From NCBI GenBank assembly GCA_000310025.1, contig FN648519.1, positions 116,227 to 180,226 on the forward strand: DNA of 64,000 bases, written 5' to 3'. The first letter of the stretch is position 1, and each line of letters begins with the position of its first letter. This DNA is from Ectocarpus siliculosus (Eukaryota; Sar; Phaeophyceae; Ectocarpales; Ectocarpaceae). The notes below the pieces were generated by a model that was not told the DNA's origin, did no database searches, and worked only from the letters and a program-made list of their open reading frames with translations. Position numbers and translations under genes: made by a program. Of the stretch, positions 23,966 to 58,734 are shown one piece after another.

Positions 23966-24590
23966 AATATTTTAGTGAAATATTTCATGGAAGTCCACGT
24001 TTCATGGAAGTCCATGGAAGTCCATGGAAAAACTGAAAAGTTTCATGGAAGTCCATGGAACTCCATGACACCATGTCCATGGAAGTCCATGGAAGTCCAT
24101 GAAATATTTCATCATGGAAGTCTATGAAACATTTCATGGACGTTCAAGAAATATTCCAGTGACGCCTACTTGGTTGATAAATGCCGACAATGAGCCTTGG
24201 CTGTGTTCTACATTGGTTTCCATGAAATGCGTGCATGGGTTTCATTGGACTTCCAAGAAACTTTTTACTTGTTTCCACGGAGCTTCATGGACTTCCAAGA
24301 ATCTATTCATGGAACTCCTTTCACTTCCATGAAAAGTTTCATGGAGCTCCTTGGACTTCCATGAAATCCAAGGAGTTCCATGAAACTTTTCATGGACGTC
24401 CATGGAGCTCCATGGAACTTTTCATGGAAGTCCATGGACGTGGAACTCTTCATGAAATATATCATGGAAGTCCAAGGAGTTCCATGAAATGCCATGAAAT
24501 GTTTCATGAACGTCCAAGGAGTTTCATCAAAAGTTCCATGGAGCTCCATGTTCCATGAAAAATTTCATGGAAGTCCATGAAAAATATTAA
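23966..24590. repeat. CATG-centred palindrome array (TTTCATGAAA / GTCCATGGAC words)
   Basis: Dozens of short palindromes of the form YYYCATGRRR (TTTCATGGAAG, GTCCATGGAAGTCCATGG, CTCCATGGAGC). In the densest stretches they sit at 10-base steps; elsewhere spacing varies, and A-rich linkers such as gaaactttt separate them. There is no fixed long repeat unit. The same vocabulary recurs at 35180-35660. Short frames across it are low-complexity and ignored. Confidence 0.88.
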
Positions 24591-24675
24591 AAACAAAATT
24601 TAAAAACTACCATTATAATAATTGAGATGAATCACACGGCGGGCTCAAGGTGCATCTGCACCAAGCCGAAAGAAA

Positions 24676-24900
24676 AGTGAGTGACACCATCCTCCGCCCA
24701 TCAGCAGAGCCGCGGGAGAAGCCAAACGGCCGGGCACAACAGCCTCGCCGACGGCCTCCACCGCCAGCTCGTCGCGTTCAGCAATGAATGGGTGTCCCAT
24801 CACAGCCAGACCCCATCTGGCGAACCGTCGGATATTGGAGGGGCGGAGGAAGTCGAAAGGGAAAAACACTTCCAACCTTTACCTAGCCATTGCCGAGTGA
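24676..24900 (+). CDS. possible exon, unknown
   Basis: Plus-strand frame of about 70 residues (LADGLHRQLVAFSNEWVSHH, then GGAEEVEREKHFQPLPSH) ending at a donor-like GTGAG|GTAGGTG. The opposite strand is also open for 76 codons (GLAVMGHPFIAERDELAVEA), so strand choice is uncertain. It could be an upstream exon of the plus-strand gene at 25126-25643. Confidence 0.25.
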
Positions 24901-25125
24901 GGTAGGTGAGGTGCGTTTTGAAGCCGTAGTGTCGTGAACACCAATTAAAGACACTCAGTTAGGTAGGCCTACTGTACTCTACATAATATAATCGAAAATC
25001 GGGTGTGATTTTGTTCCATTTTGGGGGGGGCGGGGACATATCCCCAGGTATCCTCGAGTTTTCCGCCGACGCGTCGACGCTTAGGCTTCCCGCCCTCGCA
25101 TGGTTTGCATTATCGCTGGCGCTGA

Positions 25126-25643
25126 GAAGCTGTGGAGATTGCAGAGAGATTGCAGACACGCCGTACTATACAGGGTCGTCTTCGCATTCTTCTCATGCAT
25201 ACCCCCACGAGAATCGAGGAGCAGCCGCTAGCCCGCCAGTCGACCGTGTGGCCTATTGGTCAAGTCAAACGTAAGAAGACGAACGCTACGAGTAGATTTG
25301 CGAGACTGTATTTCCTGTCGTGCAGTGCTAGAAGCAGCAAGGGCCAGATTGCAACGCAGGTTGTTCCAAGTGAAACGTGGTAAATGACCTGCTCCAAAAG
25401 AGTTGGATTGATTTCCAGCTTTGATCGACTAACTGCTGTATGGTTTTTTTCGTAGATATTGGGCGCTACGCGAACTACTGCAGGCTGCTTGGTTCCGTGT
25501 GTTCCCGTCGTAGTACGGCTGGGTCAGTGCGTGCAAGCGTCAACGACGACGAGATAGGTGCGGAACGGGTAGCGAGAGTCAAACATGTTTGGGTGCCATC
25601 CATCTACACTGTAGTAACCGTACGATATGTTTTCGACGATTAA
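25126..25643 (+). CDS. two-exon 3' end of an unknown gene
   Basis: Exon one (from the stop at 25123-25125 or an acceptor just after it, to 25270) reads EIAERLQTRRTIQGRLRILL and ends AAAC|GTAAGA in phase 1. Exon two starts after ggtttttttcgtag| at 25456 in the matching phase and reads IGRYANYCRLLGSVCSRRS, VNDDEIGAERVARVKHVWVP and TVVTVRYVFDD, then TAA at 25641-25643. Both splice sites and phases agree, which favours a genuine spliced C-terminus of about 110 residues. No family recognised. Alternative phases of exon one are also open, so the upstream reading is less certain than the last exon. Confidence 0.45.
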
Positions 25644-25850
25644 TGGTAATTTCCGATTTTCTCCCCCCTCCGGGGGGCTAGATTCTATGTGTCCGAATAT
25701 TTTCCGTGCCCTTGTATTGTTTCATACACATGTCTCCAAAAGTTGAAAACATATGCGGGGCAGTACTAATGTAGTTTTCTGGTCGTTGCGTACCAGGTCG
25801 TCAGTGCTAGGGAAGTTGTCCTGATACACTTATGATACGAGGTATTTGTT

Positions 25851-25973
25851 TTGTCCGAGTTGTGTGCAGCGTTTCCTCTCCGTTTGGTGTTAGCCTTCGA
25901 GCTTCGCCTGTGCAGTGATGTCTCCTTCGATGTGGACGCAAGTGTTGTGTGCCCACGGACCCCTTATTCTACA
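25851..25973 (+). CDS. possible exon ending at a strong donor
   Basis: Plus-strand frame (LSELCAAFPLRLVLAFELRL, SFDVDASVVCPRTPYST) ending TCTACA|GTGAGT. Acceptor candidates are tccgag| and gtgtgcag| near 25858-25870. Unknown product; the downstream partner is not found. Confidence 0.3.
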
Positions 25974-26241
25974 GTGAGTGATATAGATAGTGAAAATGCT
26001 AGGGGAGTTGCTTTAGGGCTCCAGCGACCTGTCGCGTAAGAAGGCTTCCCTGTAAATTATCATTGGGAAAGACAAGCCACATATCCAGGCCTTGGAGAAG
26101 GTGGTTGAACAGGTAAGATGTACAACACGTGCACGTTAAGAATGACGCGTCTCTATCAGATTGTCTGTATATGCGGGGGCCATGCCCGTAGTCTTGTTTC
26201 GTCTCCATCAGCATAGAGACATAACGACGCTCGCTGGGTGT

Positions 26242-27137
26242 CTATCCAGCCTCGCCACCCAGGCCCTCCAAAACACCACCCACTGCGCCACTGACGGGAA
26301 TGCCGGTCGGAAATTTGAACAAAGCATCGGCAGGGTGCAGGGTGGCTGCGCGCCCCCCTAATATATAATAGGCCTTTTGGCAAAACGTGAAGGGAGCATG
26401 CGTGACCGTTGGAAGCAGAGCAAACCGATAGACACTATCGTACTTTTGTACCCTCGGGAAGATAAGGATCCATGTATCACAAACCACACAGTAAGCATGC
26501 GACGCAGAAATGGGAAAATAGTACGACACAAACCCATTATAATCCCGTAGTCCATTTTCGCACACTACTGACATAGGCCGTGCCGTACGTTGTCTACGCG
26601 TACCGACCGTTGAATCCAACGAAAGGTTATTGAACATAAAATCAAAACCGTCACCCTGGCGCATTTTAGGGGGTTTGCAACGAACGGTGGTTTCGTACAC
26701 ACCGGGAGTGAGATCGTCGGTACAGTTCGTGTTTTCAACGTAACGTGTTTTCAACGGAACAGTGGGTGCTTCCCCTGGAGCTTCTCGGTCAACAGCAATT
26801 CGTTGTGCACGGCCATGTTCGTGAACAAGCAGAATGTACCGAGCACGCGGGGCATTCTCTTCACGACAGGTCCCAGTCCGGAAAGAAAGCTGTTGTTACT
26901 TTCCGCAACAACGGAGTTCCACATGAACCGTTCTTGTCCAGCGTCGTCGACTTCGCACAGAAGGGGGTTGTCTCGTCTCTCTGGATTACAGAACTCCCAG
27001 CAGTGTCCCTCGGTGTGTGTAGTGAAATGGAACCTGACGTGGGTGGCCGATATCAGAGTGGCAACCACAGGCATTGCTAGCGTTTCTTGCGTCGGTTGAA
27101 CATTATAGTCCAATAGCGAACGACCCAACTGAGTCTG
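26242..27137 (-). CDS. unknown protein, two adjoining frames of about 128 and 170 residues
   Basis: Strong coding composition on the minus strand. The first block follows an acceptor (ttaccttgcag|ACTCAG at 27137) and includes THTEGHCWEFCNPERRDNP, EVDDAGQERFMWNSVVAES and LGTFCLFTNMAVHNELLL, with a stop at 26751. The second, shifted by one base, continues at once with TRYVENTNCTDDLTPGVYE, NGFVSYYFPISASHAYCVV and TFCQKAYYILGGRAA, to a stop at 26242. A 13-bp word CGTTGAAAACACG is repeated 16 bp apart at the junction (about 26726-26757), the likely site of damage. No domain recognised. It lies 0.4 kb downstream of the KDZ-like transposase remnant on the same strand and could belong to that element. 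Confidence 0.45.
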
Positions 27138-27524
27138 CAAGGTAACACATCGGAGTCACCGGACGCTACCGGGGCATCCAACGTTCTAGGAATCGATAGC
27201 GACGGTCAACCGTAGACATCCACGATAAAGGGCATTGGCAACAACGCCCAAACCCCGCTTAGACGTGCAAGGTCTAGACTATGTTGATGAACAGGAGAGC
27301 CAGTCTGGGACGACGAAAGCTGCAGTACATGGAATTCCTCACCGTGGGACACGCAGCCAGGGAAATGACCCTATGCATGTACCCCCACCACTCCGTGTCC
27401 TACGGCTGGGTGGGCAATCGGAAACCATGTCATAGGCCGATATATATGTATGCAGTGGTACCCCACACGTTCGTACGCGAGAGGCGATGTGAAAAACGAT
27501 ACGTAGGCGACGCGACACACCTAC

Positions 27525-29747
27525 CTGTCTACCACGAGCTGCGTCCCTGCCCACGCCCATGCATCGGGATGGTTCTCGAGGAACGTACGGCACCTGCACG
27601 CCAAGTCGTAGATGAGTAGCTGGGGTCGAAGCGGTGGATCCGGTAATATCTCTGTCAGAGCACGGTGTACTTCCTCCATGCCCTCCGACTCCCACAGGGG
27701 CCCAGCCCCGAGAATACAGCCACACGACGCCGAGCAAACTAGGTTTCCCCAGATGTACTTCTTGTCAAACATGCTTGTCCTCATCTCGGCCGTCTGCACG
27801 TTGGGAATACGGATCGAGTTTGTCTAGGGTTGGACAAGTACGTCACATTCCAAGAGTAGTTGAAATTCCGCACTGGGTATAAACTTAAGCAATCCAAGCG
27901 TCGTTTTCACTCTGGGGGGCACATGCCATTGCTCTTCGTTGCTGTGGCGTTGCACCTGCTACACAAAATAGAGCATGTATTTCGGTTTCAGCATCTGGCG
28001 GCGTGGGCATTCACATCTTTCGTAATATGAAGGATTGGACAAACCTACTCTCACCCAGAATGGTGCAAAACAGGCGAAACGCCAGCCGTTATAGTTGCGC
28101 CCCTTGCTGTTGTTGTTGACTCCCCTATACAAGCGAGCTGAACATGACGACGCCTGGTGCCCAAAGAAGAAGAGCCTTGAAATAGTTTCCTAAAGAATGC
28201 GTCCCCTCCATGATCGACGCCCCTTTACAGGCTAACAAGCAACCAGGTGGGTCTGTTTGAATGTGAATAGATTGCTCGAGGCTGAGATAACGTGGATAAA
28301 ATGATTGACATGAAGTTGAATGTGGTGGAGAAGACGTGGTTCTACGACACAGGGCCGCAAGCACCGGTCAGTTTGCTTTCACACTCACCTCGCACTACTC
28401 CCAACCCCGATTTACCCCAACCGCGATAACATACCTCATTCTGCTCACCTGCGGCGCGCGCGCGTTGCACAGCGTGGTATCCCCCAAGCGAGTTGTGGTG
28501 TCGCCAGGAAGCTTCCAAGGGGAAATGATCCTCGCATGTTAGCGTTCCCTCTTCGTGTTGCTGCTGGCACTGTTGCGGTACAGTGACATGGCACAGATGG
28601 CCGTGGGTTCCCTCGTTAACATCGCACCACCTGCACGATCAAAAACGTAAGGTATCAGCGTACGGTATGACGATTGTTGTCATCGGATAGTCATACCCCC
28701 ACGGTTGTACAGGAGTTCAGCAGGTATTATTGGGCATGCGCAATATAGAAACAAAACGATATGTCGACATCCGGTTGCGCCTGCCCCCGCGGTCGCTTGG
28801 TACACGAACACAAGTGACACGTACAATTGAAGTTCCTCTTGGTGGAAAACTATTTTACCATGCCGGCCATGGACGGGATCCTCTTGATGAAAAACAATTT
28901 GTACCCGGCCGGTGATGGACGGGGATCGTTAGTCAGGTAGGCCCACGCACCAGTGAAAATGTTAGGCAAAGGGTGGCAGCGCCGAATATCGCAATGACAG
29001 GGATGTTTTTCAGTCTCTTCGTCATTCTGTAGTACAGCACAATGTAGGCACCTACAGTATATTCCTCCGAACCAGCAGTAACTCGTAGAGGGAACCCTCT
29101 CCTCGACGCGGATCTGAACCCAGGTGAGGTCGCCGTTCACCCCGTAGTTAGCCTTAGGCAACGCCATGGATGCTCTTATCTGCGGTTTGTTGGGGTTTTC
29201 TCTTGGTGGGATGCCCATTGTCACCCCACCAAGCCGGGTTGTTGTTCTTCTACCACGTCGGAACTCAACTCAGCATGCATGTGTTTTCGTGCCAATTTCG
29301 TAGGTTTGGGTACTTCGAGGCCGCATTTCTTGACTGCGAGCGGTACTGAAGTACTGTGGATAATATACAACGGGACGGAGGACCTTCTTGTCGTGGCTGT
29401 AATACAGTACTTCGCCTCGTTAACCTGAAATGTTTGACGCCAATATTGTATGCCTACATACCTGGACTCGCCCATCCCCGGTAGGTCGATCTGGCATCCG
29501 AACATAGCACACTTCCTCATTCTCGTGCCTGTTATGCCATCGACCACCACGCACTATATCATGTGCGCTTCGTCGTCGACCTCTACTTCTTTCCAGCAGT
29601 CATCACACAAACGTCCACTCCACATGCGGTCTTGCCAAAACGTAGACACGAGCTCGTCCATCTCCAGGCGGAGCCCCGGCCAATGGTTCAATCCACTGAG
29701 GTTTCCTGTCACGTCCAATACCCCGACCTCGCAAGGAGAGTTCGCGA
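27525..29747 (-). pseudogene. KDZ-like (Kyakuja-Dileera-Zisupton) DDE transposase remnant
   Basis: Minus-strand exons. The best supported are 27941-27842 (WHVPPRVKTTLGLLKFIP, QLLLECD) and 27793-27525, joined in phase 0 by GAC|GTACTT and cgtgcag|ACG. The second reads KKYIWGNLVCSASCGCILGA, PLWESEGMEEVHRALTEIL, then LIYDLACRCRTFLENHPD and GTQLVVDR, ending at GACAG|GTAGGTG. In KDZ transposases a YD-x-AC box followed by a VVDRFH region is diagnostic; the FH-bearing exon is not resolved here. Upstream, 29747-29221 has a CDDCW motif and VVVDGITGTRMRKC but contains an in-frame TAG at about 29552. The block 29224-28850 is Cys/His-rich (YCRCLHCAVL, HPCHCDIRRCHPL), and 28250-28131 may be another exon. 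It is a cut-and-paste transposase, now decayed. Confidence 0.55.
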
Positions 29748-30600
29748 CTATGGGATAGTTGTTCGGCAAAAACCAGAGGAAGGGGCCTTAATGGAGCGTA
29801 TCAGACAGTAGAAACAGGAAGGGAGCTGCCAAAGGTAGGAGCATTGGAGAGAGAGAGTGAGACGGCATTGATGACACTCCTGTGAGTTTAGCTTCAGAAA
29901 TATTTTGATGCTCAGGCCGTTCTCAACCACGATGACGGGCGCTTGCTTACTAAAATCTTGCCGTGAAGCAATTTTCAATACGCGAGGAAGTTGAGGGTAA
30001 CACAGCGTGTTGCGGGTAGCTATGCTGTGCTTTGTGTGGCAGAGCGAACTACTACTTGGCCGTGGGGGGGACAGTGCGTAGCGAGGTGATAGAGAGTAGG
30101 GGTTGGTATTTGCGCTCTGAATGCGGCGCAACATATTTCGTGCGTGCATCGAGAAATGTCAAAACAACTCCGTATCAGAATGAGCAAAGAACGATGATCG
30201 GTCGATTCCAATCAATATAGTATAACTGATGTCGAAGGACGCCTCTACGACGGCCTCGTGTTGTATTCGGGCATCGACGCGTATTGGAATGAAAAACGTG
30301 TTACCACAGAATTCGGGTTAGGCGCGTGAAAGCGCGTGAGTGACCAAAATGTATGTCATAAAGTCAGCTGACGTGAGTTGGAGCCGCAGCAGGACAACAG
30401 GACGATGTGGTGAGCACACCAGTTGAAGACCGTGAAGAATGTTCATGCTGCTGCATACGTAGGTCGTTCATGTGAGTATGTTGGATAATATTCCATTCCA
30501 CAAACCATGGCACGAAGGGCTGTTGCGGTTTCCACAAAGAAATGTAGGCGTTTTGTGTGGGCTAGGTGCGTTGTCCTCTGAGGACGATTTCCTTCTAAAG
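29748..30600. other. no firm gene; weak minus-strand coding-like patch
   Basis: A minus-strand frame near 29880-30010 (VLKIASRQDFSKQAPVIVVE) could be a further 5' exon of the KDZ-like gene, but splice sites are unclear. The remainder shows nothing. Confidence 0.35.
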
Positions 30601-30609
30601 GCCCACCGT

Positions 30610-31358
30610 GCGAGGTATGTCCGATACTAGGTTCGGAACGTTTGCCCGTGCGGCGTGGAGGTCATATTCGAATGAAATTAGGACGAGAGTTGTACACATC
30701 TCCGACAAAGGTGTTTGTATGTCGGGAAAAAGTTGGTCACAAAACAGAAGAATGTGGGTGCATGAATACATTCGTAGATGCCGGTGTGTACGCCCACCGG
30801 AATTTCGGGCAGCCTGTTGAGACTTTGTGGGCCGCAGTTGTGAGCAGGTTGAAGACGTGCCCGAAAGTATAAAAATTGAACATCATGGGCAGGCCCGACA
30901 TGGTCTCTTCCATGAATCGGAATGAATGATAATTATCTATCATGGTTGTGCCCTGTACCCACTTTTGTCTACATGTATTTCCCAATGGAAAACTTCAGAG
31001 TGGAGTATGTGAAAATCGGCCGCCATGGAAAGGGAATGAAAGAGAGACAAATGACGACAGCACGTGCCCCAGCACCAGTCATATTAGAACCAGAACGAAC
31101 GGCGTCCCATATCTCAGATTGCCACATATATACTTGAACAGCCACACGCGCGATACTCAGCGGTTTAGACTTCTCGCGGACCTGTGTGTCGTTGTTCCAG
31201 CGTGCAGCAAGCGTAGCCACGGAGTGTGGACGCGCGATTTTCGTACGGACTGTTCGAGTGAACCGGTCGCAAGATGCAATGACTGCTTGACGACAGACGA
31301 ACGGCTCCCCAAACGGTCTCCATTTCCGAACACGACACAAACATCTCTCTGTCAACAC
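30610..31358 (-). other. decayed coding-like region, minus strand
   Basis: Successive frames on the minus strand have coding composition but no common phase: SEIWDAVRSGSNMTGAGARA (near 31100), SGLPMMFNFYTFGHVFNLLT (near 30880) and, one base shifted, LLFCDQLFPDIQTPLSEMC (near 30700). The plus strand at 30642-30872 is also open. No family recognised. It may be a transposon relic. Confidence 0.2.
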
Positions 31359-31576
31359 AGTGCGATGTAACTAGATTGTTGGAAATATTCGTCGGTCTGG
31401 GGCTGGAGATGATTTGTGTACAAAGTGGTACATACAGTAGTTGGGTGCTTCCCCGCCTCGCACCGGGGCAACCGGGGTAGGCCCGCTAAATATACAGACT
31501 TATGAATCTGGAAGAGAGTGCTTGAATATTTATATGCATAGTTTCTTCAGCGTCCTAGTGCACGATGCACATTAAA

Positions 31577-31738
31577 TTCGAAGTGTTGCGATCTATTCCG
31601 AGAAGTGCGTCGTCACCACTTGGTGATGGTCGGGGGTAAATTTGCATGCCCTGAATTCGAGGTGTTGCGATATATTCCGACAAGTGCGTCGTCACCACTT
31701 ACTTGGTGATGGTGGAGGGTAAATTTGCATGCCCTGAT
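31577..31738 (+). repeat. direct tandem duplication, about 80 bp x 2
   Basis: Two copies of GAAGTGTTGCGATCTATTCC ... GTAAATTTGCATGCCCTGA, at about 31577-31653 and 31654-31738. The second carries four extra bases in its ACTTACTTGGTGATGG. Confidence 0.85.
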
Positions 31739-31959
31739 ACCTGGACACACACGGAGTCCGCGCGTCAGTCATGTAGATAAGGTCTGCACTGCGTAGTAGG
31801 CTAGGTTAGGAGGACGTTCGATTGCGTCCTCGCCACTTAGGCTCACTATCAGAAGAATAAGTAAAGGAACAGTCGGTCCTTTAAAAAAATGCACAGAGGC
31901 ATGTCGACGTTTTTTTTCACGTTTCCGTGAATGGAGCAAGTTTTTTTTTTCGGTACGGC

Positions 31960-32085
31960 TAAATACCCCACCGGTGGGGTATTTACGGTGGGGAATTTTT
32001 AAATACCCCACCGGTGGGGAAATATCTCATAAGCCCCAACGGTGGGGCGGTTAACGCTTAATAAACACCCCACCACCTGTAGCTC
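31960..32085. repeat. CCGG-centred palindromes, including a perfect 26-bp palindrome
   Basis: 31960-31985 is a perfect palindrome with arms TAAATACCCCACC and GGTGGGGTATTTA. A second incomplete copy (AAATACCCCACCGGTGGGG) lies at 32001-32019, followed by CCCCAACGGTGGGG and ACCCCACCACC words. Confidence 0.9.
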
Positions 32086-32290
32086 GCTTTGGAATACTCC
32101 AATCAGCACAGAACTTCAACCAGCGTGTTGCAGCGTTGCAGGGGTATCATTGGATCCATCGTGAGGCCGAAACAGCACAGTTTTGGTGGTCCCACGGTTG
32201 GTGGGGAACATACGCCGCTACCCCACCGGTGTGGTAGATAACGTTATGGACCCCACGTGGAAGGTTGTGTTGTACAACCTGGTGTTTCGT
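32070..32290. repeat. dispersed repeat, copy 1
   Basis: Shares the ordered words GTGTTGCAGCGTTGCAGGG, GTGAGGCCGAA, TTTTG.GG...CCAC and GGTGTGGT with 33985-34225. A third partial relative lies at 33081-33160 (ATAACGTTATGGACCCCACC also occurs here). No coding potential. Confidence 0.6.
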
Positions 32291-32534
32291 CAGAACGGTT
32301 AGAAAGATCAAATTTATAGATAGGTAGGCATGTGTAACGGAAAGAAAAGAAAAAGAAAGAGATGCACCTTGCTCACAACAAAAGAAACATCTGAACGAAA
32401 GAGCAAGACAACAAGCAAAAAAGAGGAGGAGTAGAAGAGAGACAGAGGAGGAAGAAGAAGGAAGCGAGTGTACGGAAGGGAGGAGACAGACAGAGAAAGA
32501 GAGCAAGAGCATCGTCGGTTCGTTTTTGTTTTTT

Positions 32535-32900
32535 TTTTAAGCCGAGGCAAGCGTGTCTCGGGCGGAAGCTAGACATGGGTAGCGTGTTCTAGGCTGAAGC
32601 AGGGCATGGGAAGGCAAAAATGATGGTGGTGGACAAACAGGGTCAAGGTAAGCGTGTCTCTGGCTGCTGAGCAGCAGGGCACGGAACGACCGGTTAAGCC
32701 GAGGTAAGCATGTTGTTGGCGAGAGCGAGACATGGAAAGACCAGAAGGTTGAGGAAGCATGTTCTAGGCTGGGGCAGGGCATGGAAAGGCTGAACAATGC
32801 GAAGGGTGTGGTCAAGGTAAGCGTGTCTCTGGCCAGAGGGCAGGACATGGAACGACCGGTAAGCCGAGGTGAGCGTGCTCGGGCAAAAGCGAAGGCTTGA
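32535..32900. repeat. degenerate minisatellite, about 40-bp subunits, about 165-bp higher order
   Basis: GGTAAGCGTGTCTCTGGC ... GGAACGACCGGT(T)AAGCCGAGG occurs near 32647 and again near 32815. Weaker subunits (GCATGTTCTAGGCTGGGGCA, GGGCATGGAAAGGC) lie between. The 132-codon minus frame over it only reflects repeat periodicity. Confidence 0.75.
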
Positions 32901-33452
32901 GCAGAGCATGGAAAGGAATGGAGGTTTGTGTCCAAGCTGGGCGACCAGCGGAGTGTGGTCGGCCTGGTTCTTATTACTTAAGGAAGCGTGTGGATTCCTT
33001 AGTAGGCTTAAGGGCCGGGAGGGAGGGAGAGAGTTCTACCTCCAAGACCCGGCCTTTGCGCGGCGACACAATAGTCTAATACATAACGTTATGGACCCCA
33101 CCAGCTGGATCCCCCTCTACAAGGCTTCGATCGACACGCAAGTACACTGCAGGAGTTTTTTGTGATCGATGCACGTACAGCGCACAGCAGCAGGCAGCAC
33201 CTGGGGCCGCGAACCGGTCAGGGAATCCCGAGGCATAGCGCCAAACACCTGACGTGGGTAAAAGCGAACACTGCCTTCTATTTTCTTGCAGAAGGCTTCG
33301 TCAACTCCCTTACCACGCACAGAAAATTCGGCGTTCTTGCGAATTTTCTGAAATGTACGAAAATGAGCGAACGACGCCTGCTGATTGGATGGTGCAGACA
33401 GTTTCATCCCTGGGTGCAAGAGCAAAGCTGCCTTCCCACTTGAGCCGTCTCT

Positions 33453-33514
33453 TGTCTATAATCCCTATCAATTGTCCGCTCGTATCGAGGGACAATTGAG
33501 AGGGATTATAGACA
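33453..33514. repeat. near-perfect hairpin, 25-bp arms, 12-nt loop
   Basis: The left arm (33453-33477, TGTCTATAATCCCTATCAAT...) and right arm (33490-33514) pair with one mismatch around the loop GCTCGTATCGAG, which itself can pair (CTCG/CGAG). It could be a miniature foldback element or a small-RNA precursor; the sequence alone does not decide. Confidence 0.85.
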
Positions 33515-33984
33515 GCAACTGGCGGGAGCGTGGTAAACGGGGCACGGAAAGGAGGTTTTCAATACATTTCTCTAGAGGGAAAGCGAAACCTTCTAACTCA
33601 AGCCCTAGGTTGCTCGGTGCCTCCTTTCAACCGTGGGCTAGGTACTTCTTCTGCGCTTGCCCCTAGTAGCGCTTAGGTCACCCAAGGGTAGACAGACGCG
33701 ACGCAACTTCGCTGTTGAACCCGCGGCGTAATCACCTCGCGATTCGACCTGTTCATTACCCTCATACTCCTCCACTCTACAAAGCATCCATACTACATAG
33801 ACTAGAGGCGTCCCTGTGTACCCTGGCACCCCCCTGTTCGAGACGTGGAAAGGAGGAGACAATCATGCCGTTCTTCGCAAGGGAAAGCAGGCGAAGAAGA
33901 TGGGGACAAAAAGTGTCCCCACAAGGCGATCCAGCCCAAAGGGGTTAAACACCACCAGGCACCCACTGCCAGATCTGCCCCCGC

Positions 33985-34225
33985 AACACTCCAATTGACA
34001 CAAGACATGTATGCACGAATGTATTGCTGCGTTGCAGGGCTATCGTGAGACCCATGGTGAGGCCGAACGATGAAGGTTTTGTGGCACCACAGTCTGTGGG
34101 GTGAACAACGCATAGTATGTGCCACCGTCCGGTGTGGTGAAAAATGAGTTCAACACCCTGCCAGCTGTATCTCCTTGTACAAGACTCCAATCGAAGCAGA
34201 AGCGCCATGGTTAGAGCGTGTTGTT
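33985..34225. repeat. dispersed repeat, copy 2
   Basis: Relative of 32070-32290: GCTGCGTTGCAGGGCTATC, GGTGAGGCCGAACGATGAAG, GTCCGGTGTGGTGAAAAATG, then CCTTGTACAAGACTCCAATC, which also resembles 33110-33140. Confidence 0.6.
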
Positions 34226-34705
34226 CAATAACACATAGCGTGCACGACGCAGTACACAGCACACAGCACACACAGAGCACCGCAGTAGCCCTGCGTTGGG
34301 CAAGTCAGTTCTGTGCAACGATTTTGGAGCGCTTCGATAGTCGGGTTTTCAAACCGGTTGTAGCGACAGAATATCCCCTCCTTCAACGTTGACCACAAAC
34401 ACTTCTTGCTGGGTTCCGCCCACGGTTAGCCCGTTCCTGGCCGGCAGCAGGACCTAAGTCCCCCGCGGTTGACAGTTTAAAACTTGCATTTGTAGAAATG
34501 GGTAGTGTCGAGGTGCCCTGTACCCAAGGGTCGTCTGCAGGCGGTTAAGCCTTTGTGCAGTTCCAGATAGAAGTCTGTGTGATGTTCAGACCGAAGTCTG
34601 TGCAGACCGAAGTCTGCTGAGGCAGTGACCGAAGTCGACGGTGTTGCTAAATGCCGCTTCTGGGACTTGTACTTTCTTTCTTCTTCTTCTTCAGCTTACT
34701 TGTAG
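34226..34705. other. no gene seen
   Basis: Contains a short tandem motif CAGACCGAAGTCTG(TG) repeated near 34560-34620 and a T/C-rich tract running into the acceptor at 34705. Confidence 0.5.
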
Positions 34706-34961
34706 AGGAGAGATGCTGAGGGATAGTTGGGGAGTGAGCACGGTGGGGCTCGCACACCTCGTGATGTTTCGCTACCATTACAATCATCTCATAAACCATG
34801 AATTCATTCATGACACCGTGTTACGTTCTACTGTACAAGACGTCATTGATCACACCGCATCTACGTATTATGAAGGTTCCGTCGTTGACAATCTTTTCCA
34901 CGGCCACGTAGAGATGGGAAAATTGCTTGTTATTGCTGAGAGACGATCAGCAAGGGTCTGA
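34706..34961 (+). CDS. possible terminal exon, unknown
   Basis: After a long pyrimidine tract (tttcttcttcttcttcag...ttgtag|) the plus-strand frame runs 83 codons to TGA at 34961. It includes GVSTVGLAHLVMFRYHYN, INHEFIHDTVLRSTVQDVID and YEGSVVDNLFHGHVEMGKLL. An ATG at 34713 could instead start a small 82-residue protein. The composition is even and not repeat-derived. No family recognised and no upstream exon identified. Confidence 0.35.
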
Positions 34962-35179
34962 GATGAAGTCGGGATCCAACTTTCTTAGGGGGAACACAGA
35001 GTAGATAATTCTAAGGGGGGATATGTGTACAAGAAGGAATACATACGTGCTGACCATCCCACTCCTATGAACAATAGGATGTACCCTATTCATGCTAGCA
35101 GCCACACTCCTCAACAATCTACTGCGCAAATTCTCTCAGTCTTGGTATGCATCATATACGAATTTGGTGTTCCAGAATT

Positions 35180-35660
35180 AATTGGAATTCCATGAAATAT
35201 TCCATGGGCGTTCATGAAACATTTCATGGACGTCCATGGGCTTTCATGAAACTTTTCATGAACGTTGATGGATGTTCATGAAATGTTTCATGGACGTCCA
35301 TGGCCTTTCATGAAACATTTCATGAACGTTCATGAAATGTTTCATTCACGGTAATGAAATATTTCATGAAAGACCATGGACGTTCATGAAACATTCCATG
35401 GGCGTTCATGGGCTATCATGAAAAGTCTTTTCATGAACGTTCATGGGCGTTCATGACACATTTCATGAACGTTCACGGGCGTTCATGAAAGCATGTCATG
35501 AACGTCCATGAAATTATTCCATGAAATGTTTCATGACAAGGAATGAAATTATTTCATGGAAAGTTTTATGACAAAAATGTCATGGACTTCCATGGACTTC
35601 CATGGAAGGTCATGGAAAAAATCGTGGAAGACCATGGAAGTCCATGGAACGGTTTCTTGG
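35180..35660. repeat. CATG-centred palindrome array, second copy of the family
   Basis: Same vocabulary as 23966-24590 but richer in ACGTTCATGAA: TTTCATGAACGTTCATGAAA, CCATGGACGTTCATG, ATTTCATGAAAG. Nested palindromes (TTCATGAACGTTCATGAA) can fold into many alternative hairpins. No coding frame. Confidence 0.88.
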
Positions 35661-36150
35661 AAGTACGAAAAGGTACAAGCCCCTGCCGACTTGACGGATT
35701 ACAGCAGGTTTCGACGATACAGGAGTAGTTTCGGGGACACAGCAGTTGCAATATCGGCATGTATGCGCCCATTAACAAACTACATTTAGAGGTAAACTGC
35801 AGCAGCACTGTACGCAGTGGGTAACATTAGCACCGCCCGTGGCACCAGCATGCTTCGAAATGCTACAGAGTCGGAGGTCCGGATACAAGAATAGGGACGC
35901 ACACATGTGGGTATCAATCTTTGAACCATGAATTCCACCCGATACATGCTTCAACTTGCAGTGCGAGACGAAGAGTTGGGGTGGTATTGCGGGTATTGCG
36001 GGTGCGAGCGAGTGCGGCGAGACGAGAGAAAGACAGCGACACACACACACACCAGGCGGACACGCCAGGCGGACACGTATGTAGACAGATGGCGAGAGAG
36101 AAAAAGCAAGCTTCTCACACACCTGCTGCTGCAACCTCGAGGCCCGAGAC
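35661..36150. other. no gene seen
   Basis: Holds a short tandem (GGGTATTGC x2 near 35988-36002), an (AC)n run near 36041 and a duplicated CCAGGCGGACACG near 36053-36078. Frames on both strands overlap these. Confidence 0.45.
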
Positions 36151-40940: not shown

Positions 40941-43246
40941 ATGCCGTTCACCGGGTCCGACAAAGCGGCGCTGCTTTTGCTCGCGTCCCTGATGTTTATA
41001 GACGACGATGACGACGACTTTGAGACACCTCTCGTGCAAGCCCTTGGAACCGCCGGGTATGATGAGGTCGCCGACTTCCTCGACGGCAGCGCCAGGGACG
41101 GCACGACCAGACCGCATGCAAAGCGGTACTGGGAGCGCACGGGACGATACCTGAGCAGCGCCCAATTCAGAAGTGCCTTTCGGTGCAGGTATGTCGCTGG
41201 CCCGAAAGCTAGGGCTGACAGTATATGCGGCGGTGTCCCTAGGACCACAAGGCTGTTCACCAGTTTAGGCTGAGCACCTCCGCCTCTCCTAAACGTAGAT
41301 TTTGTGCCTTCCGTTCGTGTCGACCCTTCCTCAGTGTACATTTGCATGAAGGGGTAAGAAAAGCGAGAGCCGTCACGCGCAATGAGCCTGCATGGGATTG
41401 ATATTTTTTATTTGCGAGCGCGCGTGACCGCTGTCCCTCCAGTCCTGTCTCAGTCTCCCCAAAGCAGCCCCAGCCCCAAACAAACGTATACCTCTTTCAC
41501 ACCCACAGCGTACACACTCTATGCTTTGTAGTTAACCCTGGTGCTTAGCAGCTGGTTAGGTTAAGCACAGAAAAGCCGATAAAAGGTGCCCGCGATCGAA
41601 ACTGACTTTTGTCTCCGTGGAAAAACCAGGAAGACGACCTTCGCGACGCTGGTGAGGAAGCTATACGGAACGACGGACTTTTGCAGGAGGGGGGCTCGTG
41701 GACCATTCTTCGATCCCAGCGAAAGGGTTGCGGTCTTTTTGTGGCGCCTGGGTCACAATACGGATGTGAGGGGGACTTCGATCATGTTTGAGCTGTCAGA
41801 GGGGGCGATCTCCTACTGCACGCTCGAGGTGGCTAAACTCATCGAAGAAAAGCTTCGTCGGAAGCATGTCGCTTGGCCCAGCCCAGCGGAGCAGCGTGAG
41901 ATTTCCACTGAGTGGGAGCTGGAGAAGGGTCTCAGGTGTGTACGACCCGTAGGTCTAACCCCGGCCTAGTATCGCCTAAACCCATCCAATCGGTGTTAGT
42001 TGCCCGAGTTTAACGCAGTTCAGTGTCGACCTGTGTGCGGGTCGGACTTGGCGTGTAGATCGAAGGACGATGAACGGGCCCTGCTGGTCCGTGCGTTGTT
42101 GTTCCAAGCGTTGGCGCGTTAAGTTACAAAGCCCTGAGCTCTGACCCTTTCCCGTTGTTGTAGCCTTTACACTTACCATCGCCGATGGCGCGCGCATATA
42201 TAGACTAAGGATATGGGTACAGGGGTTAGGGGAGCGCTGATTGTGAAGACGGCGGTGGGCCCACCACCCTGGCCAATGTATAACTTCGGAGGGATAGGAG
42301 TGTATCTTGCGTACGCTCCATGGAGGACGGATGTTGAGCCTCTCCGGTGTGCTCTGGGACCTCTTGGCGCGAGTACGAGCTGTCACCCACGTATAACCCG
42401 TGACACTGTTCTCTTGCCCAATATCTGCGTTTGCATATTCGCGCGCCCTAATGACTACCACCCTCGCGCCCGATCTTGCACGTTCGGACCTGTGCCCCAT
42501 GCAGGAACGTCATCGGAGCTATAGACGGGACCCACATCAAGGTGTCGCCCCCCGAGGCCCTGGCGAGGGCTTACTACAACTACAAGCACTTCTACTCCAT
42601 ATCCCTCCTCACGATCGTGGACAACGAGGGTCTGTTCCGCTGGTTCTGTTCCGGCGCGCCAGGGAGTTGTGGTGACAGCAGCGTCTTACAGCACAGTCAG
42701 TTCTACCATGAGGCAGAGGTGGAGCGGACGGTGGCTGCAGCAGAGCGCCGCGTCTTGGCCAACGGCGCGGTGATTCTCGGGGATTCGGCTTTCGCCGAGT
42801 CTGATTGGATGCGCACGCCGATCCCCAAGCCCACTTGCAGGGCCGAGCGGTTCTTCAACTACAAGCACTCCAGTCATCGCTTCCGAGTGGAGCACGCGTA
42901 CGGGCGCGTGAAGAAGAAATTCCCGGCGCTTGCTAAGGGCCTCGACTGCCAAATCAAGAACGCCCCTCTCCTGGTTAACGCTTGTGTCGTGCTGCACAAC
43001 TTCATCTTTGCACTGGAGGGCGAGTTTCCGAAGGACCAGGGAAAGGACAACGCGCCGACCAAGAACGGGACGGGCCACAATATTGTTGCCGGTTGCGGAC
43101 CCGCAGCTTCGGCGAGGGCGCAAGAAGTCGAACACCTTCGAGACCACTTCCTGCTGAGGGAATGGGGAGCGCCTGGCTCGCGGGCGGACCGCCGCCGCAA
43201 GAGAGCCGAGAAGCGCATGAGGAGGAACAACGGGACGTTGACATGA
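40941..43246 (+). CDS. PIF/Harbinger (HARBI1-type) DDE transposase, three exons
   Basis: Exons 40941-41188, 41630-41935 and 42505-43246 join in matching phases (TGCAG|GTATGT, accag|G; CTCAG|GTGTGT, atgcag|G) to give 431 residues. The N-terminus has a run of six Asp (about 21-26). Exon two carries the family's leader (FDPSERVAVFLWRLGHNTD) and a helix-turn-helix (FELSEGAISYCTLEVAKLI). The catalytic acids are D192 (VIGAIDGTHIKV), D278 (VILGDSAFAESDW) and E314 (RFRVEHAYGRVKKKFP), with the D35E spacing of PIF/Harbinger. PLLVNACVVLHNFI follows, then a basic tail (RADRRRKRAEKRMRR), a likely nuclear signal. Length and intactness suggest a recently active copy. The start ATG also follows an acceptor-like cgcag, so a 5' leader exon is possible. 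The Myb-like gene at 45.6-49.0 kb is the expected partner. Confidence 0.93.
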
Positions 43247-44757: not shown

Positions 44758-45370
44758 TCCCACCACAAACATGAAAGATAGCTGGAAGCAAGCGGATAAT
44801 ACAAGACACAATCAAGTCGTCTCCACCCAAAACAAGGAAATTAGCCGAAAGCAAGCGGATAACACAAGACACAATCAAGTCGTCCCCACCCAAAACAAGG
44901 AAATTAGCCGAAAGCAAGCGGAAAAGCCGAAAAACAATTGAGCAAACCAAAGACAATAAGTCCCATGCGAAACAAGGAAGTTAACAGAAAGCAAGCGGAT
45001 AACACAAGACACAATCAAGTCGTCCCCACCCAAAACAAGGAAATTAGCCGAAAGCAAGCGGAAAAGCCGAAAAACAATTGAGCAAACCAAAGACAGTAAG
45101 TCCCATGCGAAACAAGGAAGTTAACAGAAAGCAAGCGGATAACACAAGACACAATCAAGTCGTCCCCACCCAACACAAGGAAATTAGCCGAAAGCAAGCG
45201 GAAAAGACGAAAATCAATCGAGCAAACCAAAGACAATAAGTCCCCATGCGAAACAAGGAAGTTAACAGAAAGCAAGCGGATAACACAAGACACAATCAAG
45301 TCGTCCCCACCCAACACAAGGAAATTAGCCGAAAGCAAGCGGAAAAGACGAAAAACAATCGAGAAAACCA
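44758..45370 (-). repeat. tandem repeat, about 139-bp unit made of two related halves
   Basis: AACAAGGAAATTAGCCGAAAGC recurs near 44834, 44894, 45034, 45174 and 45313. It alternates with GAAGTTAACAGAAAGCAAGCGG, itself a relative of the first half. The minus-strand reading is open across units and hydrophobic (LLSANFLVLGGDDLIVS), but this is a by-product of the repeat. It sits between the convergent Harbinger genes. Confidence 0.88.
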
Positions 45371-45607
45371 AAGACGTCGCGGCTACGCGGGCTTGGGCGA
45401 GGGATCAGTGTTCGGCGACAACGTATTTTCGCGGAACCGCTGATTTCACGCCTGGTATTGGCGCCGATGCGCGACCCTACCCTGCAGACACGGCCCCAAC
45501 CACACTTCTAGTCCAAGCACGTGGCAAGGAGGGGGGAGGCGTAGGGAAGCTAAAGTAAACCTAAACCCCCCTGGGACCAAACACGCCCCCCTCCCCCCAT
45601 TAGCTTC

Positions 45608-48992: not shown

Positions 48993-49055
48993 GATGCTCA
49001 AAGTGGAGTGCGCCCCGCACACGCGGGGCGCGAAACGAGCATTCAAAAATGACCA

Positions 49056-49073
49056 CCCCCCCATGGTGGCTGT
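49056..49073 (+). repeat. left copy of the LINE target-site duplication
   Basis: CCCCCCCATGGTGGCTGT, repeated exactly at 50021-50038 on the far side of the LINE fragment. Confidence 0.85.
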
Positions 49074-50020: not shown

Positions 50021-50038
50021 CCCCCCCATGGTGGCTGT
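50021..50038 (+). repeat. right copy of the LINE target-site duplication
   Basis: Exact 18-bp match to 49056-49073. Two extra C residues precede it. Confidence 0.85.
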
Positions 50039-50099
50039 ATTTTGGCGTTTTGGTTTTTCGGTTTTTGGAATTTTTCAAAATTGAACGCGGCTTTATTAT

Positions 50100-50420
50100 T
50101 ATACAGTAGTCTAATTTCCTCCTGTGGAAAAAGCCCGAAAATATTCCTCCTGAGGTATCAGACTTGCATTCCTCGGGAAGGTGGAGGGTGTCCAAGTTCC
50201 TCCAGAGGTTACTGGACAATGATGATATCCTCCAGGAGAGGAATGAATGTGAACTTCTACAAAAAAGATAGATGCAGATGTATCCGCTGGATGAAAGAAC
50301 CTGAAACAATGCTCGCGGGGTACCGCCGTAACAATCGTCGGGAGGGTTCTTCCGGCGGGTTGTTCCTCCGGAGGGTGTTGGTTTCTAAATGTCCTCTGTT
50401 TGTTGGGCATGATGATGTCT
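50100..50420. repeat. CCTC/GAGG palindrome patch
   Basis: TTCCTCCTGAGGTATC, TTCCTCCAGAGGTTAC, TATCCTCCAGGAGAGGA and TTCCTCCGGAGGGTG recur at 25-60 base intervals. Same grammar as 8830-9620 and 39050-39290, but no fixed unit. Confidence 0.7.
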
Positions 50421-51489
50421 GTTGCTCTGGGGAAGGAAATTATCAGCTGAAAAATATCACGGCTGCGGCTTTGGCTCCATCACAGCAGCACAGAGCACAA
50501 ACAAAAAAAAAAACGACGATAAAAGAGGCCACGGGCTGCACGAGTCAGCAAGTAAACACTCCAGCATACATGCTGCGGTGCTGCTGCGAGACACAGCCCG
50601 AGGATGGTTCCTCGCCCGTGCCGCTGTACACAAAGAGGAAGCGCAGGCAGCAGGTGTGCGCGGAGGAAGGCGCCGTGGTGGGCACACAGTAAAATTGGCC
50701 AAAAGGCGGTCGGGGGAGTCGGGGCTCCAAAATGGGGTGTCGCGATTCAGACACGAGCCCCCTTCGGCCGTTGTGTTTTTGCTTCGGCCGTTGTGGTTGG
50801 CTGACCATGTGACACACACACCCCGGCACGCACACATGCACGATGAGCGATGAGCACCAGCCTCCGCAGACCGCTGCCACTGTACATCGACGTCCACACA
50901 CCACAGCATCATGAACCGAGCAGAATGTGTGCCATCCTGCTTGGTTTTCACGAGCAAGGTTCTGACAACAATGGACCTGGAAAGAGCCTTGGCAGGGACG
51001 AGACAGAGAGAAGACCATCTCCTCCTTACGATCCCGCGGCTTGTTCGAGGTAAGTGCCGCAATGTGAATGGCAGTATAGTAGAGGGATGAATTAGGCAGA
51101 GAAGGCCCTGTGCGAGCGTGTTTTGGTGATTCCGTGGGTATCGTTCCTTGGGGCTTGCTTCATTCTCCGCGGGGGAGGGTGTGTGGTTTGCTCCTGTTTT
51201 GAGACAGTACGACGAGGAGGGGCCCACGTGCTCAACATCACAGCTTGTCACATGCACTATGCGCCTGCACTATGTATGCGTCTGGCCAAAGCTTACAGAC
51301 CAGCGCAGTCCTGAGTTCATGCTAGCCAAACCATCGGGCGCGGTACCATGGGTAGTTCCACCTGGGCAAACCTGGGCTGTACCCTGTGTGGGCGATTTTT
51401 TCATGGCGGCGCCTGGAAAAAAAAGAAAAAAGGAAGAAAGTCTAGGCCTTTCCCAGACTATAACATTATTGTGTAATGAATAAAAAACG
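50421..51489. other. no firm gene; one exon-like segment near 50931-51050
   Basis: Overlapping frames on both strands. A plus-strand stretch between gagcag| and TTCGAG|GTAAGT (MCAILLGFHEQGSDNNGPGK, GRDETERRPSPPYDP) has a strong donor and coding-like composition, but no partner exon was found. Confidence 0.3.
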
Positions 51490-52800
51490 ATAATATAGCG
51501 TCTCATGGGGGCCCATGAGGCACTATGAGGAACCATGAGGTCGCATGAGCTACTATGAGAACAGGGTCATGGGGTCCCATGTAGTCCCACGAGATAGGCC
51601 ATGGGGCACCACGAGAGCATTTCCGTGTCAGCCCATGGCATGCCATGGCCGATCTCATGGGACTTTGGGAATAGTGAACCCATGGTGCACCATGAGGAGA
51701 CATGGGGATAAAAAACTGAAAACAAAAATAATTATGAAAATAAAAGTGAAGTATCGGACCTCATGGTGTACCATGGGCGACCATGGCGCACCACGGTTAA
51801 AAAAATACAGAAAGACAAAAAAAATGAAAAGTTTTTTTTTGTTAAACAATCTCACGGGGTACCACGAACGCCCATGAGTCTACCAAACCTCCCATAGTGC
51901 ACCACGAGGACCCATGGTCACTCACAGCGGATCGTAAGATATTGGAAAATAATCTTGAGTAAACAAAATATATTTAAGCCAAATATCCTTGAGTAAAATG
52001 GCCATGGTGCCCCATGAGATTTCTCATGAGATTCTCATGAGATCCATGGAAAATGTGTGTCAAGGGGCCTCATGGTGCGCCGTGGTGAACCATGGTGTTT
52101 CATGGTGGGTCATGGCGGGTCGTGAGATCCACAACAACTAAAAAAGAGATATTTTAGCGTCCCCATGGGCGCCCATGAGAATGTAACGGTGTCTCATGTC
52201 CTCCCATGGCACCCCCTGGACTATTATGAGACAGCCATCTCATGGTATCCCATGGCACCCCATGGTGTGTGATGGGGTAAGTCTCATTGTATGTCATGAG
52301 ACCCCATGGTGTCCCATGGGGCACCACGAGACACCATATTGATTCTCATGGGCGCCCATGAGATAACGGCATGTTGGCGATAATTTATTTTTTGTTATCT
52401 CACGAGACCCCATGGTGTCCCATGGGGCACCACGAGACACCATATTGATTATCATGGGCGCCCATGAGATAACGGCATTTTTTTGGCAATAAGTTTTTTT
52501 TCTCATCTCACGAGACCCCATGGTGCCCCATGGGGCACCACGAGAGACCACATTGAATCTCATGGGCGCCAATGAGATAACGGCATGGTGGCGATATTGT
52601 TTTTTTTGTTATCTCACGAGACCCCATGGTGTCCCATGGGGCACCACGAGACACCATATTGATTCTCATGGGCGCCCATGAGATAACGGCATGGTGGCGA
52701 TAAGTTTTTGACGGCATCTCACGGGCCCCATGGGGCACCACGAGATACCATGGGCTGTTATGGGCCACGCCGTGACGCCCATGGTCCGCCATGATCACAA
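51490..52800. repeat. CATG-rich palindrome array resolving into a 106-bp tandem repeat
   Basis: From 51500 to 52290, words such as CCCATGGTGCACCATGAG and CTCATGGTATCCCATGG occur at irregular spacing. From about 52297 a unit of about 106 bp appears (starts near 52401, 52508 and 52614, partial at both ends): TCACGAGACCCCATGGTG, CCCATGGGGCACCACGAG, TCTCATGGGCGCCCATGAGA, then AACGGCATG and a T-rich linker. The array seems to grade from free words into a regular satellite. Minus frames across it are repeat-derived. Confidence 0.88.
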
Positions 52801-58725: not shown

Positions 58726-58734
58726 CACACGCCC

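What the first reader, a model, noticed from the sequence alone, without database searches (positions are those of the whole stretch)
23966..52800. Arrays of free palindromic words (YYYCATGRRR) instead of a normal satellite
Three separate clusters (23966-24590, 35180-35660, 51490-52800) are composed almost entirely of short palindromes with a CATG core, such as TTTCATGAAA, GTCCATGGAC and CCCATGGGG. The first two share one vocabulary; the third uses another. There is mostly no fixed repeat unit, yet the core recurs dozens of times, often at 10-base steps, one DNA turn. This looks like expansion or selection of a palindromic word, for example a protein-binding site, a recombination product or a selfish foldback sequence. 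I know of no named repeat class with this grammar.
Basis: partly seen in the sequence, partly recalled or inferred. Interest (0 to 1): 0.8.

Follow-up and report, generated by a model that had tools for sequence, protein, structure and literature searches.

The report
Transposon ends packed with palindromic sites
The clusters of short palindromes are the built-in ends of large jumping genes in what is probably a brown alga, most likely rows of landing sites for a protein the jumping gene uses, rather than a new kind of free repeat.

Summary
In detail: the three clusters hold about 3 to 7 times more CATG and 6 to 11.5 times more 10-bp palindromes than dinucleotide shuffles. Genome-wide, paired TYCATGRA words at 10-bp and 12-bp steps number 771 and 472 (controls 3 and 0), but only 61 at 11 bp (control 4). 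The words are not free. Clusters 1 and 2 are the left and right subterminal regions of one 11,736-bp DNA transposon (23948-35683). It has a perfect 8-bp target-site duplication, and five uninterrupted empty sites match the joined flanks at 88-92%. Dispersed 1.1-1.9 kb copies keep both arrays. Cluster 3 looks like the left end of a second large element with other words but a similar tip; its right end was not found. Predicted transposase exons have KDZ (Kyakuja-Dileera-Zisupton) as best Pfam match, below cut-off. Word arms vary almost independently and the core TYCATGRA is conserved. This favours dimeric protein sites about one helical turn apart over hairpins or satellite. The kind is known (subterminal repeats of transposons). 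I did not find this palindromic, 10/12-bp-spaced, family-specific form in the listings and passages I saw.

The parts
23940..23947 (.). left copy of the 8-bp target-site duplication, TGCCGACT
   Evidence: identical to 35684-35691
23948..35683 (+). 11,736-bp DNA transposon (KDZ-like), with both tips: CAGCAATCTACATTATAG... and ...GTACAAGCCCC
   Evidence: tips and TSD; empty sites; dispersed copies of both ends
23984..24582 (.). cluster 1 = left subterminal array of TYCATGRA words, starting about 36 bp from the tip (36 CATG in 23966-24590)
24600..25103 (+). interior segment next to the left array, kept in many other copies
   Evidence: alignments of 12 of 29 loci run through the array to the end of the compared stretch (25103)
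26754..27035 (-). predicted transposase exon (FHFTTHTEGHCWEFCNP...NSVVAESNNSF...)
27524..27793 (-). predicted transposase exon (TAEMRTSMF...LLIYDLACRC...VVDR); in-frame GT..AG junction to the exon starting at 27035
   Evidence: (best Pfam match KDZ, 16.1 bits, cut-off 26.6)
35189..35647 (.). cluster 2 = right subterminal array of the same words, ending about 36 bp from the tip (36 CATG in 35180-35660)
35684..35691 (.). right copy of the target-site duplication, TGCCGACT
51454..61499 (+). left part of a second large element; tip CAGACTATAACATTATTG; right end not found; interrupted by another repeat from about 61493
51502..52795 (.). cluster 3 = left subterminal array of the second family (58 CATG in 51490-52800; words such as TCTCATGGGC, GCCCATGAGA, CCCCATGGGG)
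52290..52709 (+). 106-bp tandem unit, 4 copies, inside cluster 3; runs of related units in other copies
   Evidence: (repeated matches of query 851-1312 on C89, C147, C311)

Best explanation
Clusters 1 and 2 are the subterminal repeat arrays of one cut-and-paste DNA transposon inserted at 23948-35683; cluster 3 is probably the left subterminal array of a second, related family. SHOWN: the insertion, its 8-bp target-site duplication, the empty sites, the paired ends in dispersed short derivatives, the symmetric core TYCATGRA that varies less than its linkers, and the 10/12-bp steps. PREDICTED: transposase exons. INFERRED: each word is a two-fold symmetric binding site for a dimer of an element-encoded protein (the transposase or an accessory DNA-binding protein). 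Rows of sites on roughly one face of the helix would load many dimers at both ends, bringing the ends together for excision and letting the protein tell its own family from others. Short non-autonomous copies keep both arrays because both are needed in cis and are mobilised in trans. The vocabulary differs between families because the protein and its sites change together.
For: Perfect 8-bp TSD and defined tips in the window. Flanks joined across the insertion match uninterrupted DNA at 5 places at 88-92% identity over all 600 bases, and at 10 further places at 73-75% over bases 33-600. Of 29 loci holding cluster-1 relatives, 13 show both tips; one of these (L018) has tips of two different elements; of the other 12, 5 have an exact 8-bp TSD and 1 a single mismatch. 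Of 39 cluster-2 places taken from the list, 24 have a listed cluster-1 relative within 25 kb; 23 are on the same strand and in the right order, and the 24th (C455) was paired by my script with a neighbouring element although a correctly ordered partner lies 21 kb away. Diversity among other copies, word core vs linker: 0.084 vs 0.133 (left array), 0.145 vs 0.253 (right array), reached by 0 of 599 and 1 of 464 circular shifts. Arms pair little more often than composition predicts: 0.49/0.71/0.45 observed vs 0.46/0.68/0.43 expected over 1822 words, with no excess among the 252 distinct words. Genome-wide pairs of TYCATGRA: 771 at 10 bp, 61 at 11 bp, 472 at 12 bp; backward-pattern controls 3, 4 and 0. 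Best Pfam match of the transposase fragment is KDZ. Subterminal motifs bound by element proteins are described for hAT Hermes (PMC10368747, passages), and motif arrays bound by an element protein for Arabidopsis VANDAL (PMC5735166, passages).
Against: No binding has been shown. The KDZ match is below cut-off (E = 0.0097; 16.1 of 26.6 bits); the KDZ model found nothing in the whole genome (where it also found nothing in 14 control genomes); three exon fragments of relatives gave no Pfam match; a search for longer protein relatives found none among 149 candidates. Counting every word of every copy, arm pairing is slightly above shuffles at all three positions of the first family (0-3 of 500 shuffles reach it) and at position 2 of the second (0 of 500); this vanishes among distinct words. 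Conservation of the core could be inflated by aligners anchoring on CATG. Array cores are no more conserved than the adjacent interior with three of the four references that could be compared for the left array (interior 0.055-0.057; L012 0.149; L022 none). Four of 12 two-ended copies show no TSD (L011, L013, L021, L033). Cluster 3 has no known right end, no TSD and no recognised transposase.
Confidence: 0.7

Rival explanations
1. The arrays recruit an element-encoded anti-silencing or transcription factor (as VANC does on VANDAL elements), rather than taking part in end pairing.
For: VANC targets are short motifs, accumulated as tandem repeats, that vary between related elements (PMC5735166, passages). 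Family-specific vocabulary seen here.
Against: The arrays sit next to both tips and are kept, in order, in derivatives of 1.1-1.9 kb. VANC motifs also lie in introns and upstream regions (passages).
Confidence: 0.2
2. The arrays are a DNA-structure or RNA-hairpin feature (foldback, cruciform, small-RNA source) kept for their self-complementarity, or made by template-switch correction of imperfect palindromes.
For: Arrays match their own reverse complement at about 70-78% over 220-390 bp, and the two arrays match each other about equally in both orientations. Counting all words, arm pairing is slightly above shuffles (892 vs 836, 1300 vs 1242, 822 vs 777 of 1823). The second family's 6-bp linkers pair more than shuffles (220 vs 191, 186 vs 148 of 455). 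CACTA subterminal repeats are also described as able to fold (PMC4219821, passages).
Against: Both ideas predict that the two arms change together. The excess is small and is absent among distinct words and in the window's own words (36 vs 33.4, 50 vs 50.5, 28 vs 32.0 of 72). First-family linkers show no clear excess (one of seven positions at 28 of 1000 shuffles).
Confidence: 0.1
3. Neutral tandem expansion: a short symmetric unit multiplied by slippage inside a transposon end, with no function.
For: 10/32/64/106-bp units are visible. Shuffling the gap order keeps much of the phasing. Linkers diverge faster than the adjacent interior with three of four references.
Against: Core less variable than linkers. 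Two families with different sequence share the CATG core and a 10.65-10.7-bp best period. Both ends of the first family have arrays.
Confidence: 0.15

Closest known systems
Giant KDZ (Kyakuja-Dileera-Zisupton) DNA transposons, e.g. of Ectocarpus (PMC12477816, passages) and Cryptococcus KDZ1-3 (PMC12810828, passages)
   Same: Size about 9-30 kb; 8-bp TSD (KDZ1; 4-8 bp reported for KDZ2 and KDZ3); non-autonomous relatives; best Pfam match of the transposase is KDZ; genome probably a brown alga (EsV-1-7 repeats scored in 150 places, 0 of 14 control genomes)
   Different: TIRs of 139-241 bp are given for Cryptococcus KDZ; here 13 of 20 tip bases match. The words 'subterminal' and 'palindrom' do not occur in the main text of PMC12477816. 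Transposase match is below cut-off.
Subterminal repeats of CACTA/EnSpm elements (soybean TgmR*, PMC4219821, passages)
   Same: Large element (13 kb) with direct and inverted short motifs inside both tips; motif differs between subfamilies; part of the motif marked as a TNPA-like protein site
   Different: CACTA tips and 3-bp TSD there; CAG/CCCC tips and 8-bp TSD here; motif here is itself a dyad with 10/12-bp steps
Subterminal repeats of hAT elements (Hermes, PMC10368747, passages)
   Same: hAT elements usually make 8-bp TSDs (PMC12730594, passage); repeated short motifs near the tips; a quasi-palindromic motif pair bound cooperatively by two BED domains
   Different: Hermes has 17 and 14 motifs in its two ends; no hAT family matched here; arrays here are denser and more regularly spaced
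VANDAL/VANC motif arrays (PMC5735166, passages)
   Same: Family-specific short motif in dense tandem arrays inside a transposon, diverging between related families
   Different: YAGTATTAY-type motif ('palindrom' does not occur in that main text); anti-silencing role; a Mutator-like element (recalled)
Foldback (FB/TU) elements (recalled, no call)
   Same: Ends made of short repeats; arrays here also match themselves and each other in inverted orientation
   Different: Long inverted arms are not evident beyond what the palindromic words themselves produce; arms of words vary almost independently

Membership tests
KDZ superfamily | 8-bp target-site duplication | tested here: met
   window exact TGCCGACT; 5 of 12 other two-ended copies exact, 1 with one mismatch
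KDZ superfamily | KDZ transposase domain (PF18758) | tested here: inconclusive
   best match, E 0.0097, 16.1 bits, cut-off 26.6; no hit in this genome nor in 14 control genomes; three fragments of relatives no match
KDZ superfamily | zinc-chelating CxC domain (in Cryptococcus KDZ1-3) | tested here: inconclusive
   no Pfam match in 10 stop-to-stop ORFs of the interior; the gene was not modelled in full
KDZ superfamily | terminal inverted repeats | tested here: inconclusive
   left tip vs reverse complement of right tip 13 of 20, reached by 5e-05 of shuffles: short and imperfect
KDZ superfamily | large size (about 9-30 kb in published members) | tested here: met
   11,736 bp
hAT superfamily | hAT transposase domain | tested here: inconclusive
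   no hAT family among matches; gene only partly read
CACTA/EnSpm | CACTA tips and 3-bp TSD | tested here: not met
   tips CAG...CCCC, TSD 8 bp
Ordinary satellite | open-ended head-to-tail array of one unit, not bounded by transposon tips | tested here: not met
   clusters 1 and 2 lie at fixed places inside dispersed elements with tips and TSD; cluster 3 has one tip only
Foldback element | long inverted terminal arms | tested here: inconclusive
   arrays match each other in both orientations: best direct 69.5% over 266 bp, best inverted 70% over 210 bp, as palindromic words would give anyway
Transposase-binding subterminal repeats (works like) | element protein binds the repeats | not testable with these tools
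   needs a binding assay

The most novel reading that the evidence does not exclude
A superfamily of giant brown-algal transposons uses a coded landing strip: its ends carry about 0.5-1.3 kb of two-fold symmetric sites with a common CATG core, laid at 10- or 12-bp steps and rarely 11, so that a dimeric element protein can polymerise along one face of the DNA; each family changes the outer letters as its private password, which decides who mobilises whom.
Probability: 0.3. Interest if true: 0.65.

Novelty: new variant of a known kind. Interest (0 to 1): 0.45.

Why it matters
It turns an apparently unclassified repeat grammar into transposon anatomy with a testable rule: 8-bp dyad core, 10/12-bp spacing, a vocabulary per family. 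If the arrays are protein sites, comparing array vocabularies with transposase sequences across many families in one genome gives a natural experiment on how a transposase and its sites change together. Such arrays could also be filed as unknown tandem repeats in genome annotation.

Tried and rejected
Degenerate ordinary satellite: rejected for clusters 1 and 2, since arrays are bounded and tied to tips. Foldback or compensatory palindromes: not favoured. A 'CATG-centred, all' count used whole loci including CATG outside arrays and is not used for the families (the window-only rows are). Long-range helical order beyond local steps: not supported. Structured RNA: no Rfam match at gathering score in the window; no tRNA found. 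CACTA: rejected on tips and TSD. Right end of the cluster-3 element: looked for in 12 kb downstream of a copy on C24 and by searching for each copy's flanking 8-mer again within its own locus; not found. Transposase for the cluster-3 element: none by local comparison with the window's fragment or by Pfam on 10 ORFs. Protein relatives of the transposase fragment: three short proteins, no longer ones. Literature: searches; no title or abstract start listed there describes palindromic CATG arrays in transposon ends. Iyer et al. 2014 is not held; the original Zisupton paper was not looked up; supplementary files could not be read. Papers were seen as search listings and passages only (PMC12477816, PMC12730594, PMC5735166, PMC10368747, PMC12810828, PMC4219821); none was read whole. 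Recalled without a call: FB/TU foldback elements, VANDAL as Mutator-like, the GT-AG rule.
Full report
1. The observation. Against 200 dinucleotide shuffles, CATG counts are 36 vs 5.5, 36 vs 6.4 and 58 vs 17.1 (a background stretch: 12 vs 7.0). Perfect 10-bp palindromes are 6 vs 0.7, 11 vs 1.0 and 11 vs 1.9 (background 3 vs 2.0). The commonest CATG-to-CATG gap is 10 in all three clusters; 12 is second in the first two. Phasing at 10.45, 10.80 and 10.70 bp beats random placement (0, 0 and 2 of 2000), but reshuffling the observed gaps reaches it in 278, 266 and 666 of 2000, so the order is local. Tandem Repeats Finder does find units: 10/22/32/64 bp in clusters 1-2, and 106 bp with 4 copies in cluster 3.

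2. Genome-wide. The window lies on contig 95 of a 189-Mb genome in 492 contigs. TTTCATGAAA occurs 466 times against 70 for the backward control. Two TYCATGRA words at a 10-bp step occur 771 times (control 3), at 11 bp 61 times (control 4), at 12 bp 472 times (control 0). EsV-1-7 repeats gave 150 scored matches (150 of 880 candidates scored) and none in 14 control genomes. Together with genome size and repeat content this points to a brown alga (inference).

3. What the clusters are. Cluster-1 sequence has dispersed relatives over most of its length: 224 matches from 40 scored of 135 candidate places, the long listed ones at 74-94% identity. Cluster 2 likewise, with more partial matches: 223 from 40 scored of 126 candidates. 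Of 39 cluster-2 places that I took from the list, 24 have a listed cluster-1 relative (of 42 taken) within 25 kb; 23 are in the same orientation and order, and the remaining one (C455) was paired with a neighbour by my script while a proper partner stands 21 kb away. So 1 and 2 are the left and right parts of one element. Only the stronger rows of each call were used, so the lack of a partner in 15 places is not evidence of a lone end.

4. Tips and insertion. Comparing the loci gives a left tip CAGTCATCTACATTATAGTA and a right tip AGTACGAAAATGTACAAGCCCC. In the window these lie at 23948 and 35683, an 11,736-bp element, flanked on both sides by TGCCGACT. Of 29 other loci (L006-L034), 13 show both tips within 6 mismatches. 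One of these (L018) has tips of two different elements. Of the remaining 12, five have an exact 8-bp duplication (L010, L012, L014, L022, L034) and one has a single mismatch (L009). L006 and L032 show a duplication shifted by 1-3 bases by eye. L011, L013, L021 and L033 do not show one. Joining 300 bases of each flank, with one copy of TGCCGACT, matches uninterrupted DNA at five places over all 600 bases at 88-92%, and at ten more over bases 33-600 at 73-75% (40 of 42 candidates scored). The window element is therefore an insertion into an older repeat. The 12 two-ended copies are 1.1-1.9 kb long: both arrays and a little interior, as in internal-deletion derivatives.

5. The transposase. On the minus strand the element has predicted exons at 27524-27793 and 26754-27035 that join in frame over a GT...AG intron. 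The 183-residue product's best Pfam match is KDZ, E 0.0097, 16.1 bits, below the 26.6-bit cut-off. The same fragment gives 150 matches in this genome (150 of 223 candidates scored, the window's own two rows included): three close copies at 87-94% and many at 35-57%. C455 carries one close copy between a cluster-1 and a cluster-2 relative. Negative results: the KDZ profile rings neither in this genome nor in 14 controls, three relatives' fragments match no family, 10 stop-to-stop ORFs match none, and no longer protein relative was found among 149 candidates. I hold KDZ as likely, not proven. KDZ elements, among giant transposons generally over 10 kb, make up 1.8% of the Ectocarpus genome (PMC12477816, passages). 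8-bp TSDs are stated for Zisupton (PMC12730594, passage) and for Cryptococcus KDZ1, with 4-8 bp for KDZ2 and KDZ3 (PMC12810828, passages).

6. Cluster 3. It begins at 51454 with CAGACTATAACATTATTG; among 12 distinct loci with a readable tip, the window's included, there are 10 different left flanks (two pairs share one). Its long matches are 84-97% identical. Its tip matches the first family's at 13 of 20 bases, reached by 0.095% of shuffles. The element runs at least to 61499, where a repeat with many copies at 99-100% identity interrupts it. I did not find its right end in 12 kb beyond the break point of a copy on C24, nor a transposase. In L046 and L047 the DNA after the array is about 80% identical to window 34874-35116, beside cluster 2, which links the two families further. 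Cluster 3 as a transposon end thus rests on the similar tip, the sharp left boundary and the long shared interior, not on a duplication.

7. The grammar. Among 1822 array words of the first family there are 252 distinct 10-mers, consensus TYCATGRA; the second family uses CATG with other arms (1099 words, 149 distinct). In both, positions -k and +k have mirror-image composition, and the best period is 10.7 and 10.65 bp. Within a word the arms pair little more often than composition predicts: 0.49, 0.71, 0.45 observed vs 0.46, 0.68, 0.43 expected (first family); 0.48, 0.52, 0.35 vs 0.47, 0.44, 0.32 (second). Counting all words of all copies, this small excess is beyond most shuffles (first family 2, 0 and 3 of 500; second 93, 0 and 19 of 500); among distinct words it is not (90, 470, 227 and 271, 83, 220 of 500), nor in the window's own words. 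First-family linkers show no clear excess; second-family 6-bp linkers do when all are counted (220 vs 191 and 186 vs 148 of 455), not among distinct ones. So symmetry lies mainly in the consensus, and the halves drift almost independently: closer to two equal half-sites than to a stem. Among other copies, diversity in the 8-bp core is 0.084 vs 0.133 in linkers for the left array and 0.145 vs 0.253 for the right, with 0 of 599 and 1 of 464 circular shifts reaching the difference; four other reference copies gave 0-1 shifts for the left array. A count with the window as reference gave 0.042 in CATG, 0.096 elsewhere in the array and 0.064 in the interior. The aligner may favour CATG, and the adjacent interior is at least as conserved as the core with three of four references, so I treat this as supporting, not decisive.

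8. How it most likely works. Several DNA transposons load their transposase or a helper on repeated motifs inside the tips. Hermes has 17 and 14 such motifs, with a quasi-palindromic pair bound cooperatively (PMC10368747, passages). CACTA elements have direct and inverted subterminal motifs that differ between subfamilies (PMC4219821, passages). VANDAL elements carry family-specific tandem motifs for VANC (PMC5735166, passages). Here the sites are dyads about one helical turn apart at both ends. I infer that a dimeric element protein covers both arrays and brings the ends together, with family-specific outer letters as identity marks. Nothing here shows binding.

9. Verdict. Real, and well explained as anatomy for clusters 1 and 2: transposon ends. 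Kind known, form unusual. The strangest part that survives is the 10-or-12-but-rarely-11 spacing of symmetric sites, with a similar period in two families of different words.

Noticed in passing
window 2219-4749 and 21453-23587: Long inverted arms (about 87-89% identical over two blocks of 1.0-1.1 kb) that contain 124-bp tandem arrays (TRF 2219-3428 and 22836-23587), with a reverse-transcriptase ORF (14035-14763, minus) between them: probably another large mobile element; the KDZ-like element is inserted in DNA beside one arm, and a further piece of the 124-bp repeat lies at 36588-36747.
   Followed up: partly
window 8880-9620: A further set of palindromic words with a CTAG core (CCTCTAGAGG) in a degenerate 158-bp tandem repeat; 7 perfect 8-bp palindromes vs 2.5 in shuffles. 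Possibly the same principle with another core.
   Followed up: partly
window 61493-63900 and beyond: A repeat with about 19 long listed copies at 99-100% identity in the genome: recent amplification, nested in the cluster-3 element.
   Followed up: no
window 42455-43246: DDE_Tnp_4 transposase ORF (Pfam E 1.2e-32), Harbinger type by recall.
   Followed up: no
L001 1130-1230: A second vocabulary (CCCATGGGC words) stands directly beside a TTCATGAA-type array.
   Followed up: no
G000 C67:35971-36133, C129:3509-3844, C30:1818600-1818760: Clusters of TCCATGGA words at 11-bp steps, against the 10/12 rule of the family studied: perhaps further families with their own spacing.
   Followed up: no
L046 2808-3051 and L047 1200-1440: DNA following the cluster-3-type array is about 80% identical to window 34874-35116, beside cluster 2: shared interior or exchange of parts between the two families.
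   Followed up: partly
window 44779-45375: A minisatellite with 63- and 140-bp units (95-97% match).
   Followed up: no
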